Assembly: GCA_030151165.1 (NCBI GenBank)
Contig: JASLEM010000107.1
Span: 1-6,952 of the forward strand
From: Burkholderiaceae bacterium
GTDB lineage: Bacteria > Pseudomonadota > Gammaproteobacteria > Burkholderiales > Burkholderiaceae
DNA length: 6,952 nt
Reading direction: 5' to 3'
The notes under the pieces were generated by a model. That model had not been told where the DNA came from and made no database searches. It saw nothing but the letters and a program-made list of their open reading frames with translations. The stretch's first letter is position 1. Each line of letters begins with the position of its first letter. A program made the translations under genes and the position numbers. Shown here in pieces: positions 292 through 6,952 of the stretch.

Positions 292-576
292 TCAGCGATC
301 GGGCATCAGCTCGTCGATCGCCGCCGTCGTGTTGAGCGCGTGCTCGGCGACCTGCTCGATGTTCATGCCGATCACGGCCAGCGGGTAGGTGCCCGAGACG
401 ATGCCGTCGAGCCACAGCTCCGCCGCCAGCGCCTCCGGCGGCAGGCCCTCGACGGCCGCCACGAGGCACTCGACGATCGAGCCGAGCCCGTCGTCGCCGT
501 AGAGCTCCTCGGCCTCGAAGCTCACGCCGTAGCCGAACGAATCGGAAGATTTGTCGATGTCGATGCGCACGATCAT
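292..576 (-). CDS. Small acidic protein of unknown function (94 residues)
   Basis: The frame starts with ATG at 574-576 and ends with TGA at 292-294. I chose this start over an in-frame upstream one because an AAGGA ribosome binding site lies six bases before it, and because the upstream reading (to about 705) gives a basic, arginine-rich stretch unlike the rest. The protein is compact and acidic, with clusters of Asp/Glu at about 6-30 (including EAEELYGDDG) and 74-93. It has one cysteine (37) and no signal peptide or membrane segment, so it should be a soluble cytoplasmic protein. The alternation of an initial beta-like stretch (MIVRIDID) and helical segments suggests a small alpha/beta fold, but I do not recognise the family. 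It lies 199 bases downstream of the ABC exporter on the same strand, with a dyad between them, so it may be a separate transcription unit. Confidence 0.75.
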   Translation of the reverse strand: MIVRIDIDKSSDSFGYGVSFEAEELYGDDGLGSIVECLVAAVEGLPPEALAAELWLDGIVSGTYPLAVIGMNIEQVAEHALNTTAAIDELMPDR

Positions 577-582
577 GGGAAG

Positions 583-775: not shown

Positions 776-2626
776 TCAACGCTCGCCGGTCTGGAGTCGC
801 CAGAGGGCCGCGTACGCGCCGCCGCGCGCGACGAGCTCGTCGTGCGTACCCGACTCCACGATGCGACCGGCCTCCATCACGTGGATGCGATGCGCCTGGC
901 GAACGGTCGAGAGCCGGTGCGCGATGATCACGCTGGTGCGGCCCTGGACGAGCCGGTCGAGCGAGCGCTGGATCGCGGCCTCGGTCTCGTTGTCGACGGC
1001 CGACGTCGCCTCGTCGAGGATCAGGATCGGCGGGTTCTTCAGGATCGCCCGCGCGAGTGCCAGCCGCTGGCGCTGCCCGCCCGAGAGCTTCATGCCGCGC
1101 TCGCCCACCGGCGTGCGGTAGCCCTGCGGCAGCGCGCGGATGAACTCGTGCGCCTCGGCGGCCTGGGCGGCGCGGACGATGTCGGCCTCGCTCGCGTCGT
1201 GCAGGCCGTACGCGATGTTCTCGGCGACCGTGCCGTCGGTGAGGAAGCTGTCCTGCGGCACGTAGCCGATGGCGCGGCGCAGGTCCTGGAGGTCGAGCGT
1301 CGTGATGTCGACGCCGTCGAGCCGGATGCGGCCCGGGCCGGCGTCGTACAGGCGCAGCAGCAGCTTCACCAGCGTGCTCTTGCCGCTGCCGGTGCTGCCG
1401 ACGAAGGCCACCGTCTCGCCCGGCGCGATGCGCAGCGAGAGGCCGTCGATCGCCGGCGCCACGAGGTTGGACGCGAGCGCGCCGGCGAAGCTGCGCGTGT
1501 CGCGCGACTCGCCCTGCGCGGCAGCGTGGTACGCGAAGCGCAGGTCGTCGAACACCAGCTCGCCGCGCACTTGGGCGCGCGGGAGCGCGCGTCCCGCGTA
1601 CGGGATGGCGATCGGCGTCTGCAGCAGGTTCATCACGCGGTCGATCGAGGCCATCGAGCGCTGGTAGAGGTCGGTCATGTCGGCCAGGCGCGTCAGCGGC
1701 CACAGCAGGCGCTGCGTCAGGTAGACGAGCGCCGAGTAGCTGCCCACGCCGATCTCGCCGCGCAGCGTCATCAGGCCGCCGTACAGCATCGTCACGCTGA
1801 AGCCGGCCAGGATCGCGATGCGGATCACCGGCGTGATCGCCGCCGACAGCCGGATCGCCTCGCGGTTGCGTTCGCGGTAGGCGAGCGAGGCCTGGGCGAT
1901 GTGGTCGGTCTCGAAGTCTTCGGCCGTGTAGGCCTTGATGGTCGCCACGCTCTGCAGGTTGTTGTTCAGGCGGGTGGCCATCGCGCCCGCGGCCTCGCGC
2001 ATCGCGGCGTAGCGCGCGGCCAGCCGGCGCTGGAACCAGAACGCGCCGTACAGGATCAGCGGCACCGGCACCAGCGCGAGCGCCGCGAGCTTGGCCGTCA
2101 GCGCGAAGAACACGCCGCCCACCATCAGCGAGCCGACGAAGACCTGGATCAGGTCGTTCGCGCCGCCGTTGAGGAAGCGCTCCATCTGGTTGACGTCCTC
2201 GTTCAGCACCGCCAGCAGGTTGCCGGTGCGGTTGCGCTCGAAGTACGCCATCTCCAGCCGCTGCACGTGCGCGTACGCCTCCATGCGCAGGTCGTGCTGC
2301 AGGTTCTGCGCGATGCCACGCCACTTGAGGCTGTACAGGTACTCGAAGAACGACTCGCCGAGCCAGATCGCGATCGTGAGCACGGTGAGCAGCACGAGCT
2401 GCTGCGTCGGGTCGGCGATGCCGAAGCGCGCGACGAACGAGGCCTTGCGGTTGACGACGACGTCGACCGCCACGCCGATCAGCAACTCCGGCAGGACGTC
2501 GAAGAACTTGTTGACCACCGAGTAGACCGTCGCCAGCACGACGTCGGCCCGATACCCCTTGGCGTACCCCATCAGCCGGCGCAGCGGATGGACAGGCGGG
2601 CGGGCGGCGGGGTGGGGATCGGTCAT
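776..2626 (-). CDS. ABC exporter, fused transmembrane and ATPase domains (MsbA/multidrug type)
   Basis: This is a complete 616-residue half-transporter of the ABC-B exporter family. It should work as a dimer in the inner membrane and use ATP to drive export of a lipid, drug or peptide; the substrate cannot be read from the sequence. The membrane domain covers about 1-330, with hydrophobic segments near 28-58, 76-98, 157-177, 180-198 and 262-310. The nucleotide-binding domain covers about 355-616: A-loop Tyr366, Walker A GSTGSGKST (410-418), Q-loop Gln458, signature LSGGQ (514-518), Walker B ILILDE (534-539) with catalytic Glu539, D-loop SAVD (542-545) and switch His570. All catalytic residues are present and the length is normal. 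About 20 extra residues (369-390) separate the A-loop strand from the Walker A strand. The start at 2626 is preceded by an 11-bp tandem repeat rather than a clear ribosome binding site. It is transcribed divergently from the DUF1697 gene. The family is certain; the substrate is unknown. Confidence 0.96.
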   Translation of the reverse strand: MTDPHPAARPPVHPLRRLMGYAKGYRADVVLATVYSVVNKFFDVLPELLIGVAVDVVVNRKASFVARFGIADPTQQLVLLTVLTIAIWLGESFFEYLYSLKWRGIAQNLQHDLRMEAYAHVQRLEMAYFERNRTGNLLAVLNEDVNQMERFLNGGANDLIQVFVGSLMVGGVFFALTAKLAALALVPVPLILYGAFWFQRRLAARYAAMREAAGAMATRLNNNLQSVATIKAYTAEDFETDHIAQASLAYRERNREAIRLSAAITPVIRIAILAGFSVTMLYGGLMTLRGEIGVGSYSALVYLTQRLLWPLTRLADMTDLYQRSMASIDRVMNLLQTPIAIPYAGRALPRAQVRGELVFDDLRFAYHAAAQGESRDTRSFAGALASNLVAPAIDGLSLRIAPGETVAFVGSTGSGKSTLVKLLLRLYDAGPGRIRLDGVDITTLDLQDLRRAIGYVPQDSFLTDGTVAENIAYGLHDASEADIVRAAQAAEAHEFIRALPQGYRTPVGERGMKLSGGQRQRLALARAILKNPPILILDEATSAVDNETEAAIQRSLDRLVQGRTSVIIAHRLSTVRQAHRIHVMEAGRIVESGTHDELVARGGAYAALWRLQTGER

Positions 2627-2768: not shown

Positions 2769-3317
2769 ATGAAGCGTCACATCGCCCTGCTGCGCGGCAT
2801 CAACGTCGGAAAGGCCAAGCGCATCGCGATGGCCGACCTGCGCACGCTGATGGAAGGCCTCGGCCACGTCAACGTGCGCACGCTGTTGAACAGCGGCAAC
2901 GCGGTGTTCGACGCCCAGGGCGGCACGCCCGCCGCGCATGCCGCGAAGCTGAAGGCCGCGATCCTGCAGCACGCGGGGGTCGACTGCGAGGTGATCGTCA
3001 AGACCGGCGCCGACCTCGCCGCCGCGATCGCCGAGCACCCGCTCAAGGCGCATGCGAACGACGATGCGCGCATGCTCGTCATGTTCACGCAGGACGCCGC
3101 GTCGCTCGCGCTGCTGGCGCCGCTCGAAGGCGGCGACTGGGCGCCCGAGGCCTTCGCCGTCGGCCGCCACGCCGCGTGGCTGTGGTGCGCGGACGGCGTG
3201 ATCGACAGCCGCATCTCGAAGGCCGTCGGCAAGCTGCTCAAGACGAGCGGCACCGCGCGCAACTGGGCGACGGTGGAGAAGCTGGACGCGATGGTGCGGG
3301 AAGTGCGGGAAGGCTGA
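2769..3317 (+). CDS. DUF1697 family protein
   Basis: This is a complete 182-residue soluble protein that matches the DUF1697 family along its whole length. The diagnostic N-terminal pattern is present: LLRGINVG (7-14), then MADLR (21-25), LGHVNVRT (31-38) and NSGNAVF (41-47). So is the typical C-terminal pattern TARNWATVEKL (162-172). Family members are about 180 residues long, so this one is full length. The biochemical role of the family is not established. The repeated alpha/beta pattern and the lack of a signal peptide or membrane segment suggest a cytoplasmic protein. I start it at 2769 because the family begins with Met plus a few residues before the first strand (here MKRHIALLRG); the open frame continues upstream but reads as arginine-rich noise there. 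It is divergent from the ABC exporter and convergent with the acetyltransferase, so it is probably transcribed alone. Confidence 0.93.
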   Translation: MKRHIALLRGINVGKAKRIAMADLRTLMEGLGHVNVRTLLNSGNAVFDAQGGTPAAHAAKLKAAILQHAGVDCEVIVKTGADLAAAIAEHPLKAHANDDARMLVMFTQDAASLALLAPLEGGDWAPEAFAVGRHAAWLWCADGVIDSRISKAVGKLLKTSGTARNWATVEKLDAMVREVREG

Positions 3318-3338
3318 GGCGGCGCCAGCGCGCCTCAG
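3314..3338. terminator. Hairpin spanning the two convergent stop codons
   Basis: A perfect 8-bp inverted repeat, ctgaggcg at 3314-3321 and cgcctcag at 3331-3338, encloses a nine-base loop. The TGA of the DUF1697 gene (3315-3317) is in the left arm, and the TGA of the acetyltransferase gene (3335-3337 on the minus strand) is in the right arm. The position suits a bidirectional transcript end for two convergent genes 17 bases apart. Neither side has a T-run, so a classical intrinsic terminator is not supported. Confidence 0.4.
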
Positions 3339-4252
3339 GCGGCCCCGGCGGGTCTGACCATCAGCACCTGGTGCACCGCCTGTGCCGCGAAGCCCTCGCG
3401 CCGCGCCGCGTCGCCGCCGAGGTCGTCGCGCTGCAGCGGCGGGATCACGATGTCCTCGGCCGGATGCGCGATGCGCAGGCGGCGCAGCAGCACCTGCGCG
3501 TCGTGCTGCGCCGGGTCGGTGTCGACGAGGCTGTGCACCTGCGTCGGCGTGCCGTCGACGACGCTGAACACCAGTTGCGCGCTGCCCAGGCGCCAGCACG
3601 TCAACGCCCGCGCGCTCATCGCGAGCGACGGCGACGTGACCTGCAGCGGCACGTCCGGCACCCGGCCGACGACGTCGTCCAGCCACGCGAACGCGTCCGC
3701 GTGGTCGACGACCTGCGGCTCCGGCAAGGGCTCGCGCGCCGAGGCCCGCCGGCTCGCCTCGGCCGACTGGATCCAGCCGTTCAACCGGCGCAGCGCGACG
3801 AAGCCGCGGCGCTCGTAGAGGGCCAGCGCTCGCGCGTTCTGCGCGATGCATTCGAGCTCGACGTCCGCCACGCCCGCGGCGCCGGCGCGCGCCACGACGT
3901 CGTCGAGCAACAGGCCCGCGACGCGCCGCTGGCGTCTCGCCATGATGGGCGCGCTGCCCGCGACGCCGCTGCCGCGCGCCGCGGGCAGCGCGCCCACCAT
4001 GGCGAGACGCCAGCGGCGCGTCGCGGGCCGCGGCGCGACCAGCGCGAAGGCGACCGGCCGCCCGGCGCCGCCCGGCAGCGCGACCCGGCTCGCGCCGAGA
4101 TCGACCGCGTGGCGGCCGAGGAAGGCCGGCCACTGCTCGAACGTCATCTGGAACGGGCCGATGATGTAGTCCGAGAACGCCGCCATCGCGGCGGCGTGCA
4201 GGTCGGCCGGCGCCACCGCGGTGCCGGGAACCAGGATCGTGTCGATCGTCAT
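3335..4252 (-). CDS. GNAT-family N-acetyltransferase with a 14-residue inverted-duplication insert
   Basis: This is a complete 305-residue protein predicted to transfer an acetyl group from acetyl-CoA to an amine; the substrate is unknown. The GNAT domain lies at about 5-165. The acetyl-CoA-binding loop is RGSGVA (93-98, matching R/Q-x-x-G-x-G/A). The later conserved block is ELECIAQNARALALYERRGF (132-151), with the usual Asn139, Tyr146 and Gly-Phe 150-151. Between the loop and the helix that normally follows it (LLLDDVVARA, 114-123) there are 14 extra residues, SAPIMARRQRRVAG (100-113). They are encoded by an antisense copy of the upstream codons; removing them restores a normal motif and gives 291 residues. 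The region 175-305 looks like a degenerate second GNAT-like half, with LLRRLR (255-260) and a late GF (287-288). It has no signal peptide. The ATG at 4252 is the first in-frame ATG after the efflux gene stop; its ribosome binding site is weak. The family is confident, but activity is doubtful because of the insert. Confidence 0.9.
   Translation of the reverse strand: MTIDTILVPGTAVAPADLHAAAMAAFSDYIIGPFQMTFEQWPAFLGRHAVDLGASRVALPGGAGRPVAFALVAPRPATRRWRLAMVGALPAARGSGVAGSAPIMARRQRRVAGLLLDDVVARAGAAGVADVELECIAQNARALALYERRGFVALRRLNGWIQSAEASRRASAREPLPEPQVVDHADAFAWLDDVVGRVPDVPLQVTSPSLAMSARALTCWRLGSAQLVFSVVDGTPTQVHSLVDTDPAQHDAQVLLRRLRIAHPAEDIVIPPLQRDDLGGDAARREGFAAQAVHQVLMVRPAGAA
3913..4029. repeat. 50-bp inverted repeat with 17-base loop inside the acetyltransferase gene
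   Basis: The left arm 3913-3962 and the right arm 3980-4029 are reverse complements at 49 of 50 positions; the sole mismatch pairs 3945 with 3997. The loop is 3963-3979. In the mRNA this would be a very stable hairpin of about 117 bases. The 42 bases at 3914-3955 appear to be the new copy. They are bounded by an 11-base direct repeat, gcccgcgacgc at 3914-3924 and 3956-3966, exactly 42 bases apart. The inverted version of the same 11-mer sits at 4018-4028. This fits an intrastrand fold-back copy of the preceding codons. Confidence 0.95.
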
Positions 4253-4314: not shown

Positions 4315-6952
4315 TCAGCCCGCGTGCTGGTCGACCGGCACCTGCCGAGTATCGCCGCCGCGCCGCGACGAGCGCGTCGAGAAGCGGCGCATCGCGTTCA
4401 TCGGCTCGCTCCGGCGGAACAGGCCGCCGGTGCGGATGCCGATCGCCCACAGCACGAGGCGGTAGAAGAAACGCAGCGTCGTGACGAACGCGAGGAACTC
4501 GAGCACGCCGAGTGCGGCCGCGCCCATCGACGACACGCGCAGCGCACGGCGATGGAAGCTCGCGCGGGCGCGCTCGCGCATCATCTCGATGCTGTCGTAG
4601 AAGCACGGGATGACCAGGAGCGTCAGCAGCGTCGAGGTGATGGTGCCGCCGATGATCGTGACGGCCATCGGGCGGTAGAACTCGCCGCCCTCGCCCAGCC
4701 CGATCGCGACCGGCAGCATGCCGGCGATCAGCGCGAAGGTGGTCATCAGGATCGGGCGCAGGCGTTTCCGGCCCGCGTGCATCAGGGCCTCCTCGCGATC
4801 CATGCCTTCGCGCTCCTCGGCGCGCGCGGCGTCGAGCAGCAGGATGGCGTTCTTCGCGACCAGGCCCATCAGCATGATGACGCCGATGATGGACATCAGG
4901 TTCAGCGTGCCGTGCGTCGACACCAGCGCGATCACCACGCCGATCAGGCTCAGCGGCAGCGAGATCATCACCGGCACCGGCGCCGTGAACGAGCCGAACT
5001 GGATCACGAGCACGAGGTACATCAGCGCGATGCCCGAGATCAGCGCCGTGCCGAGCGCCGAGAACACCTCGTCCTGGTCGTGCGAGTCGCCCGCGAGCTC
5101 GACGCCGAAGCCCGGCGGGAACTGGATCTCCTTGACGATCTTCATCGCGTCCGCGGTGACCTCGCCGGTCGAGCGGCCCTGCGCGTTGGCGGCCACGACC
5201 ATCATGCGCTTGCCGTTCGCGTGCTCGATCGTCGACGGCGACTTGCCCATCGACACGTCGGCGATCTGCTCGAGCGGCACGACGCGGTCGGTGCCGGCGA
5301 TGGCGATCGGCAGGCGCTCGATGTTGGTCGCGTCGACGCGATCCTCCGGCGCGAGGCGCACCGCGACGTCGCGCGTCTCGCCGGTCGGGTCGACCCAGTC
5401 GCCCGACTCGACGCCCGCGAACGCGACGCGCAGCGTCTGCGCCGCGTCGTTGATCGACACGCCCATCTGGTTGGCGAGGCCGCGCTTCAGGTCGATGCGC
5501 AGCTCCTGCTGCGGATCCTGCTGCGACAGGCCGATGTCGACCGCGCCCTTGACCGTGTGCAGCTTGGCCATGAAGTCGGACGTGATCTGCAGCAGCTGGC
5601 GCGCGTCGGTGCCGTAGAAGCGCACCTGCACGGGCTTGTCGGTGCCGTTGTTCAGGTTGTCCAGCACGACGTACTCGGCGCCCACCAGCTGCGCCATGCG
5701 GCCGCGCAGGTCGGTCGCGATCTCGGAAGCGCTGCGCTTGCGCTGCGTGCTCTTGCCGATGTCGACGTAGATGCGCACGTTGTCCGACGAGATGCGCGTG
5801 CTGGTGTGCTTGTACTCGGGCAGCTGGCGCGCCAGCTCGGTCATCTCGTGCGCCTTCTGGATCGCGTACTTGATGTCCATGCTGGGCGGCATGCGCGCGG
5901 TCACGGCGATCTGGCCGAAGTCCTGCTTCGGCAGGAACTCGCTGCCGCCGGCCACGGCCTGCAGGCCGAGCGCCGCGACGAAGCTGAGGAACGCGATCCA
6001 GCCCATGATCCAGCGGTGGTGCAGCGCCCACTGGATGACGCGGCTGTAGCGATCGGCCTGGTGGTCGAACCACTCGTTGAAGCGGTGCAGCACGCGGCCG
6101 ATGGCGTTGCGCGGCGCGGTCTCGTGGTCGGGCGGGTCGCCCCAGTACGCCGACAGCATCGGGTCGAGCGTGAACGAGATGAACAGGCTCACGATCACCG
6201 ACACGGCGACCGTCAGCCCGAACGGCCGGAACCACTCGCCGGCGATGCCCGGGATGAACGCGACCGGCGCGAACACCGAGACGATCGAGAACGTCGTCGC
6301 CGCCACGGCCATGCCGATCTCGGAGGTGCCGTTCAGCGCCGCGGTGCGCCGGTCCTCGCCGCGCTGCATGTGGCGCACGATGTTCTCGCGCACCACGATC
6401 GCGTCGTCGATCAGCACCCCGATCGCGAGCGACAGCCCGAGCAGGCTCATGAAGTTCAGCGTGAAGCCGCACAGCCACACCGCGATGAACGCGGTCAGCA
6501 CCGAGGTCGGCAGCGACAGCGCGGTGATCAGCGTCGAGCGCCACGAGTTCAGGAACACGAAGACGACCGCGACCGTGAGGAAGGCGCCGAAGAACAGCGA
6601 GTGGATGACGTTGTTGAGGCTGTCCTGCGCCTCCTCGCCGCCGTCGCGCGTGACTTCCAGCGTCGCCTTGCCGCCCTGCTCGGTGTTGATCGCCTTGACG
6701 AGGTCGCGCACCTGCTTGGCGACGCTGACCGTGCTCGCGTCGCGCGTGCGCGAGACCCAGAGGCCGACGTTGGCGCGGCCGTCGCGCTCGCTGCGGCTGG
6801 TGTCCTCGGCGAAGCCGTCCTGCACGGTGGCGACCTGGCCGAGGCGGATCAGCGTGTCGCCCGCGCGCTTGACCGGGATCTGCGCGAACTCGCCCGGCGA
6901 TTCGATGCGGCCGACCAGGCGGATGCTCTGGTCCTGCAGCGCGCCGCGCACC
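4315..6952 (-). CDS. RND multidrug efflux permease (HAE-1 type), N-terminus beyond the window
   Basis: The frame is open from the right edge to a TGA at 4315-4317, and 878 residues are visible. By comparison with AcrB-type pumps (about 1,050 residues) roughly the first 225 are missing, including membrane segment 1. The protein is the inner-membrane, proton-driven pump of a tripartite efflux system. Residues below are numbered from the edge. Segments 2-6 lie at about 115-265, with the adjacent proton-relay Asp pair in VLIDDAIVV (Asp182-Asp183). Segment 7 is at 313-332, the second periplasmic loop at 335-630 and segments 8-12 at 632-785, with the relay lysine in GLVAKNAILLLD (Lys700). The Asp-Asp pair points to drug-type rather than metal-type RND pumps. 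After segment 12 the chain continues for about 90 residues with another hydrophobic stretch (810-837) and a basic, polar tail, which is longer than usual. The adaptor and outer-membrane partners, if linked, would lie beyond the right edge. The acetyltransferase follows 62 bases downstream. Confidence 0.95.
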   Translation of the reverse strand, partial: VRGALQDQSIRLVGRIESPGEFAQIPVKRAGDTLIRLGQVATVQDGFAEDTSRSERDGRANVGLWVSRTRDASTVSVAKQVRDLVKAINTEQGGKATLEVTRDGGEEAQDSLNNVIHSLFFGAFLTVAVVFVFLNSWRSTLITALSLPTSVLTAFIAVWLCGFTLNFMSLLGLSLAIGVLIDDAIVVRENIVRHMQRGEDRRTAALNGTSEIGMAVAATTFSIVSVFAPVAFIPGIAGEWFRPFGLTVAVSVIVSLFISFTLDPMLSAYWGDPPDHETAPRNAIGRVLHRFNEWFDHQADRYSRVIQWALHHRWIMGWIAFLSFVAALGLQAVAGGSEFLPKQDFGQIAVTARMPPSMDIKYAIQKAHEMTELARQLPEYKHTSTRISSDNVRIYVDIGKSTQRKRSASEIATDLRGRMAQLVGAEYVVLDNLNNGTDKPVQVRFYGTDARQLLQITSDFMAKLHTVKGAVDIGLSQQDPQQELRIDLKRGLANQMGVSINDAAQTLRVAFAGVESGDWVDPTGETRDVAVRLAPEDRVDATNIERLPIAIAGTDRVVPLEQIADVSMGKSPSTIEHANGKRMMVVAANAQGRSTGEVTADAMKIVKEIQFPPGFGVELAGDSHDQDEVFSALGTALISGIALMYLVLVIQFGSFTAPVPVMISLPLSLIGVVIALVSTHGTLNLMSIIGVIMLMGLVAKNAILLLDAARAEEREGMDREEALMHAGRKRLRPILMTTFALIAGMLPVAIGLGEGGEFYRPMAVTIIGGTITSTLLTLLVIPCFYDSIEMMRERARASFHRRALRVSSMGAAALGVLEFLAFVTTLRFFYRLVLWAIGIRTGGLFRRSEPMNAMRRFSTRSSRRGGDTRQVPVDQHAG

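What the first reader, a model, noticed from the sequence alone, without database searches (positions are those of the whole stretch)
3913..4029. Large in-gene inverted duplication with the signature of a fold-back template switch
Seen: the arms are 50 bp with one mismatch and the loop is 17 bases. The junctions make a complete story on the minus strand. The 3' end CGCGGGC (3962-3956) can fold back onto GCCCGCG (3986-3980), a 7-bp pairing. Extension from there copies the strand's own upstream codons for 42 bases. The copy ends in GCGTCGCGGGC, which matches the original template at the point of departure and so permits return in register, giving the 11-base direct repeat 42 bases apart. The net gain is 42 bases, which keeps the frame. 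The single mismatch (a T where the copy predicts C, changing Thr to Ile at residue 103) would be a later point change, so the event looks recent. Quasi-palindrome template switching is an established mutational mechanism; its use here is inference. The alternative is a fold-back artefact of amplification or assembly.
Basis: partly seen in the sequence, partly recalled or inferred. Interest (0 to 1): 0.75.

Follow-up and report, generated by a model that had tools for sequence, protein, structure and literature searches.

The report
Self-copied inverted insert in acetyltransferase gene
A bacterial enzyme gene carries a 42-base stretch that is a backward copy of its own neighbouring sequence, most likely left by a copying enzyme that briefly switched strands; it is a clear natural example of a known kind of mutation and probably damaged the enzyme.

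Summary
The inverted repeat is real: 3913-3962 / 3980-4029, 50 bp, one mismatch, loop 17, far beyond chance (score 46; highest in 60 shuffles 16). It lies in a GNAT acetyltransferase gene (minus strand, 4252-3335). The 14 residues it adds are absent from the 119 other homologues aligned and from 30 of 30 distinct family loci, so it is a derived 42-bp in-frame insertion copied backward from the codons just upstream. It falls at the start of the helix behind the acetyl-CoA loop. Both switch points sit in short homologies (7 and 11 nt); the return homology comes from a probable pre-existing inverted repeat (4018-4028 / 3956-3966).

The arm mismatch is a later change in the ORIGINAL arm (ATG to GTG, Met86Val): the copy keeps the ancestral ATG, so residue 103 was probably never Thr. 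And the sequence fits synthesis on either strand, not only minus-strand fold-back. The gene probably lost activity (inferred from predicted structures). An artefact is unlikely but untested: no reads, no sister strain. New member of a known kind, of modest interest.

The parts
3335..4252 (-). GNAT-family N-acetyltransferase gene, 305 codons plus stop, carrying the insertion
   Evidence: translation; Pfam PF00583 27 bits over 20.7 cutoff; structural matches to GNAT enzymes
3980..4029 (-). Original arm: the gene's own codons (residues 75-91, RPATRRWRLAMVGALPA), the template of the copy; carries derived GTG (Val86)
   Evidence: motif conserved in homologues
3963..3979 (-). Loop between arms (residues 92-97, RGSG acetyl-CoA loop region)
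   Evidence: R93, G94, G96 present in 119 of 119 others
3913..3962 (-). Inverted arm: inverse copy of the upstream arm, including 7 nt of homology at its start and the 11-nt direct repeat at its end; carries the ancestral base at the mismatch
3914..3955 (-). Net 42-base insertion (residues 100-113 SAPIMARRQRRVAG; equivalently 99-112, since the ends are ambiguous within the direct repeat)
   Evidence: absent in 119 of 119 other homologues in A2 and 30 of 30 distinct loci
3914..3924 (+). Direct repeat copy 1, GCCCGCGACGC (return point)
3956..3966 (+). Direct repeat copy 2, GCCCGCGACGC (departure point; also one arm of the probable pre-event 11-bp inverted repeat with 4018-4028)
3956..3986 (-). 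Short hairpin (3966-3956 with 3986-3976, one T.G wobble) that could prime the backward copy
4018..4028 (+). Other arm of the probable pre-event quasi-palindrome (GCGTCGCGGGC on +)
3997..3997 (-). First base of codon 86 (GTG); substitution after the duplication, where homologues have ATG

Best explanation
A replication or repair template switch inside a GNAT gene made a 42-bp in-frame insertion. Preferred route: a nascent minus strand that had reached 3956 folded back, its 3' end CGCGGGC pairing with GCCCGCG at 3986-3980 in a short hairpin. It then copied its own previous bases backward (template 3987-4028, 42 bases, or 43 with 4029), and returned to the true template through 11 nt that the end of the copy shares with the departure site. 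That homology exists because 4018-4028 and 3956-3966 already formed an 11-bp inverted repeat, a quasi-palindrome. The result is a hairpin with 50-bp arms. Shown: the sequence anatomy, the derived state of the insertion, and homology at both switch points. Inferred: the switch itself, the strand and enzyme, that it happened in the cell, the pre-event bases, and the effect. The insert separates the RGSG acetyl-CoA loop from its helix by 14 residues and puts a 50-bp hairpin in the mRNA, so the enzyme has probably lost most activity. Afterwards one base of the original arm changed (Met86Val). The confidence given covers in-cell template switching by either route; about 0.47 of it is for this fold-back order and 0.35 for the first rival.
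For: Arms and repeats exact. Beyond chance. Insert absent in 119 of 119 other homologues aligned and 30 of 30 distinct family loci. The 11-nt and 7-nt homologies have a chance of 1.4e-6 and 1.9e-4 of matching at one given site at this composition. 4018-4028 / 3956-3966 is the only perfect 11-bp inverted repeat with spacer up to 60 in the window apart from pairings within the two long arms; its gapped score is 31 against 12-26 in 29 relatives. The 31-nt primer hairpin folds at -16.4 kcal/mol with the 3' end paired; 6 of 200 shuffles fold as well. The arm mismatch carries the ancestral base in the copy, so time has probably passed since copying. A like event, fold-back palindrome extension with return and a 66-bp insertion, is described for rad27-delta yeast (PMC5677150, section 12 part 1 read). 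Loss of function: in the predicted structures the helix starts about 9 residues earlier than in the nearest homologue, and residues 97-100 have pLDDT under 50.
Against: No reads, no sister strain and no whole genome are held; the protein cluster is a single sequence on one 6952-base contig. The nearest homologue is only 78% to 82% identical, so the exact pre-event DNA is inferred. At the departure site, G99 occurs in 0 and V97 in 3 of 119 others, and the L after the insert stands in a column where 3 of 119 have L, so part of the site may have been remodelled. The strongest fold of the pre-event strand pairs the 3' end with 4028-4021, not with the internal site used. An 11-bp inverted repeat somewhere in 7 kb is not rare: 33 of 60 shuffles score 11 or more. 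Apart from Met86Val the gene shows no clear decay: 3 departures in 65 conserved columns, two of them shared with near homologues.
Confidence: 0.82

Rival explanations
1. Same product by another biological route: plus-strand synthesis switching to the opposite strand at the 11-nt homology and returning at the 7-nt one (intermolecular switch of the kind credited to Ripley), or snap-back synthesis at a double-strand break followed by microhomology end joining. This share is counted inside the 0.82 of the best explanation.
For: Both orders of switch give the observed bases (my reading of the sequence). In this order the first switch uses the longest homology, the one that the strongest fold also pairs. 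Break-induced fold-back inversions are documented in yeast (PMC11724301, abstract and outline); the intermolecular alternative is discussed in PMC5677150 (passages).
Against: Nothing in the sequence tells them apart. The break-associated inverted duplications of PMC11724301 are mostly about 5-34 bp, with the other end captured by end joining (abstract). PMC5677150 prefers the intramolecular route for its own mutant (passages).
Confidence: 0.35
2. Fold-back artefact of library preparation, amplification or assembly.
For: Chimeric reads with inverted repeats are known from library preparation (PMC10908179, passages), and polymerases switch templates at inverted repeats in PCR, up to 1.54% of reads for one polymerase (PMC5218489, passages). 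The contig is a singleton. A chimera of two strains or a base error at 3997 could mimic the arm difference.
Against: Needs two switches in one molecule and then dominance in the assembly. The junctions share only 7 and 11 nt, too short for a usual assembler k-mer (recalled), so the joins must have been in reads. A tube copy should match its template, but the copy differs by one base and has the ancestral one.
Confidence: 0.08
3. A mobile palindromic element (Rickettsia palindromic element, MITE) inserted in frame.
For: In-frame palindromic insertions in genes are known in Rickettsia (recalled).
Against: The palindrome is made of the gene's own conserved codons; no third copy of the arm in the window (next best match has 20 of 50 mismatches). 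There was no whole genome to search.
Confidence: 0.01
4. A conserved functional hairpin or functional protein loop in this subfamily.
For: Very stable RNA hairpin, -145.8 kcal/mol, z -15.4; open frame kept.
Against: Absent from the 119 other homologues aligned and 30 distinct loci. An open frame is expected by chance between one time in four and one in three (one third for length, times 0.77 by composition or 784 of 874 antisense 42-mers of the gene).
Confidence: 0.03

Closest known systems
Palindrome extension by fold-back template switching in rad27-delta yeast (PMC5677150; passages and section 12 part 1 read)
   Same: Nascent strand folds back at a short palindrome, copies tens of bases of itself, realigns to the template and leaves a tens-of-bases insertion with a short duplication
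   Different: Bacterial wild sequence rather than a mutant yeast line; parental sequence not observed; in frame inside a conserved enzyme motif
Quasipalindrome-associated template-switch mutations in E. coli lacZ reporters (PMC7202029; listing and methods section read)
   Same: Bacterial; inverted repeat; intramolecular switch in a coding gene
   Different: Those reporters score correction of a 4-bp difference between arms, not extension of arms by about 40 bp
Template switching in S. cerevisiae coding genes (PMC8604942; abstract and outline seen)
   Same: Evolutionary footprint in protein-coding genes at inverted repeats
   Different: There arm homogenisation and spacer inversion, up to five neighbouring amino acids; here a 14-residue insertion
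Small inverted triplications (PMC13334657; abstract and section 2.6 read)
   Same: Short inverted copy, short junction homology
   Different: They are DUP/INV/DUP of about 150 bp; no third, direct copy of the arm here
Coding palindromes in Nematomorpha mitochondria (PMC6649704; abstract and outline seen)
   Same: Long inverted repeat inside an open reading frame
   Different: There both arms encode conserved residues; here only one arm does

Membership tests
Quasi-palindrome template-switch mutation (palindrome-extension class) | One arm is an inverse copy of adjacent original sequence | tested here: met
   49 of 50 positions; upstream arm is the conserved one
Quasi-palindrome template-switch mutation (palindrome-extension class) | Copy is derived, absent in relatives | tested here: met
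   0 of 119 other homologues aligned carry it; 0 of 30 distinct family loci
Quasi-palindrome template-switch mutation (palindrome-extension class) | Homology at both switch points and a pre-existing inverted repeat | tested here: met
   7 nt and 11 nt; inverted repeat 4018-4028/3956-3966; pre-event state inferred, not observed
Quasi-palindrome template-switch mutation (palindrome-extension class) | Parental allele observed in an isogenic or sister strain | not testable with these tools
   no sister strain found; nearest protein 78%
Small inverted triplication | Third, direct copy of the segment after the inverted one | tested here: not met
   only two full-length places match the arm in the window; next best has 20 of 50 mismatches
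Mobile palindromic element (RPE/MITE) | Foreign origin, not host-gene sequence | tested here: not met
   arms are codons of the host gene's conserved motif
Mobile palindromic element (RPE/MITE) | Dispersed copies in the genome | tested here: inconclusive
   no other copy in the window; whole genome not held
Library or assembly fold-back artefact | Arms identical because copied in the tube | tested here: not met
   one difference, ancestral base in the copy; a strain chimera or base error is not excluded
Library or assembly fold-back artefact | Minority soft-clipped reads, no spanning reads | not testable with these tools
   no reads available
GNAT acetyltransferase | GNAT domain and fold | tested here: met
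   PF00583 above cutoff, but the best stretch is residues 107-151 only; Foldseek best matches are GNAT enzymes
GNAT acetyltransferase | Continuous acetyl-CoA loop and helix (motif A; the motif's role is recalled) | tested here: not met
   14 residues inserted after RGSGVA(G); residues 97-100 pLDDT under 50 and helix starts at 102, against a helix starting right after RGSG in P0003

The most novel reading that the evidence does not exclude
The inverse self-copy is kept as a working new piece of protein: 14 residues read from the antisense of the enzyme's own motif now lengthen the cofactor-binding helix and alter the enzyme, while the 11-bp direct repeat allows exact loss of the 42 bases, so the locus could toggle between two enzyme forms.
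Probability: 0.07. Interest if true: 0.65.

Novelty: new member of a known kind. Interest (0 to 1): 0.36.

Why it matters
It is a clean natural bacterial case in which departure point, template, return point and a later substitution can all be read from one sequence, and in which a hairpin was extended rather than merely corrected. The template-switch papers that I opened concern yeast, cancer genomes or E. coli reporters. The base difference between arms shows how relatives can order events after the copy, which helps to separate real events from fold-back artefacts in metagenome contigs.

Tried and rejected
Mobile palindromic element, conserved functional hairpin and small inverted triplication were considered and set aside (see rivals and membership tests). 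General gene decay was looked for and not found beyond Met86Val. A same-species or sister contig was sought through the GNAT protein, one genome-contig scan (one locus, 47%), a viral-contig scan (no relative), a plasmid DNA search (417 records, the ten listed match the RND pump region), 399 genomes of one family (69 with a match, best long match 56% identity; loci held for the best 30 places), two genera (four and three genomes, no new places) and the neighbouring DUF1697 protein (best 91%, on a 1196-base contig). None gave DNA close enough to show the empty site. Of 248 protein hits only the best 120, the window's own included, were listed and aligned. The pattern used could match only the form without the insert and missed L016; I therefore realigned all 31 loci without that assumption: 31 of 31 lack the insert and have ATG at codon 86, L001 and L002 being the same gene. 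still rests on the 29 distinct loci found by that pattern. Literature searches returned capped listings, of which I saw titles and starts of abstracts; none of these spoke of a bacterial in-frame insertion of this kind, which is not proof that none is in print.

Full report
What is there. The gene on the minus strand (start 4252, stop codon 3335-3337) reads open for 305 residues. Pfam finds a GNAT acetyltransferase domain, but the best stretch covers residues 107-151 only, and Foldseek places the predicted structure among GNAT enzymes, several of them tandem GNATs. The inverted repeat has arms 3913-3962 and 3980-4029 (50 bp, one mismatch, loop 17), or 54 bp with two mismatches and a loop of 9. 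The direct repeat GCCCGCGACGC begins at 3914 and at 3956. The best inverted repeat of each of 60 dinucleotide shuffles scored 9 to 16; this one scores 46. No inverted repeat scoring 16 or more occurs in the 31 related loci, 125,063 bases, two of which overlap.

It is an insertion. The 120 best proteins of a database search with 248 hits, the window's own and 119 others, were aligned; none of the 119 others has the 14 extra residues. The same holds for 31 of 31 fetched family loci, 30 of them distinct (an earlier count with a pattern that assumed the form without the insert is superseded). The upstream arm encodes the conserved motif (WRLA..GALPAARG), so the downstream arm is the copy. The inserted residues are SAPIMARRQRRVAG or, equivalently, GSAPIMARRQRRVA. 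They follow RGSGVA(G), where residues 93, 94 and 96 are the same in all 119 others.

How it was made. On the minus strand the sequence before the insertion ends in GCGTCGCGGGC (3966-3956). Its last seven bases pair with 3986-3980; with one T.G wobble the pairing extends to 3976, and the 31-nt segment folds at -16.4 kcal/mol with its 3' end paired, though 6 of 200 shuffles fold as well. Extension from there copies 3987-4028 and yields the 42 new bases, ending in the same GCGTCGCGGGC; that lets the strand return in register. The return homology exists because 4018-4028 and 3956-3966 form an 11-bp inverted repeat, the only perfect one with spacer up to 60 in the window apart from pairings within the two long arms. 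With a two-base gap it is longer, and its gapped score of 31 exceeds those of 29 relatives (12-26). So the site was probably a quasi-palindrome, a known trigger of template switching (PMC7202029, PMC5677150). An 11-bp inverted repeat somewhere in 7 kb is not rare in itself: 33 of 60 shuffles score 11 or more. What matters is that it lies exactly at the switch points.

Strand. Read in the other direction, a plus strand copying 3956-3966 could switch to the opposite strand at 4018-4028 through 11 nt and return through 7 nt, with the same product. The strongest fold of the pre-event minus strand (-36.5 kcal/mol, 0 of 200 shuffles as stable) pairs the 3' end with 4028-4021, not with the internal site. 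I keep self-fold-back as somewhat more likely because it needs one molecule only, but this is not shown.

The mismatch. At 3945/3997 the copy reads ATG in the sense of the original arm, and the original arm reads GTG. Met is present in 117 and Leu in 2 of the 119 other homologues, and ATG in 30 of 30 distinct family loci. So the copy holds the ancestral base and the original arm changed later (Met86Val). It is also the best argument against a copy made in the tube, although a chimera of two strains or a sequencing error at 3997 would give the same picture.

Effect. AlphaFold models (mean pLDDT 93.7 and 96.4) place the motif A helix at 102-125 in the window's protein and at 91-105 in the nearest homologue P0003, which corresponds to 111-125. 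The helix is thus about nine residues longer at its start, the RGSG loop is no longer next to it, and residues 97-100 have pLDDT under 50. I infer weakened or lost acetyl-CoA binding. The transcript would carry a hairpin of -145.8 kcal/mol, a likely RNase III substrate (recalled). Apart from Met86Val the protein shows no clear decay: three departures in 65 conserved columns against 0-5 in the set, two of them shared with near homologues. An open frame after such an event has a chance of about one quarter to one third, so it is no sign of selection.

Source. No whole genome is held. The GNAT protein is a single-sequence cluster on one contig of 6952 bases. The GNAT-DUF1697 pair seems conserved: hits to both proteins name contigs of 17,422 bases and of 1,977,392 bases. 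The latter is named Scleromatobacter humisilvae there, order Burkholderiales, family Sphaerotilaceae. The window is therefore probably from an uncultured relative in the Burkholderiales.

Verdict. A well-formed footprint of template switching, of the palindrome-extension type described in yeast (PMC5677150). It is a new member of a known kind. The main open point is whether reads confirm it.

Noticed in passing
window 2769-3337: A DUF1697 gene (+, 2769-3317) and the GNAT gene (-, stop codon 3335-3337) are convergent with 17 bases between them; the pair seems conserved on the contigs of P0003/P0129 and of Scleromatobacter humisilvae, judged by equal contig lengths.
   Followed up: partly
window 776-2626 and 4315-6951: An ABC transporter of permease-ATPase type (-) and an RND efflux permease of AcrB type (-) cut by the contig end.
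   Followed up: no
window 3956-3966: Residue G99 at the departure site is in none of 119 other homologues and V97 in only 3, so the departure site may have been remodelled in the same or an earlier event.
   Followed up: partly
window 292-582: A 96-residue stretch read on the minus strand with no Pfam match.
   Followed up: no
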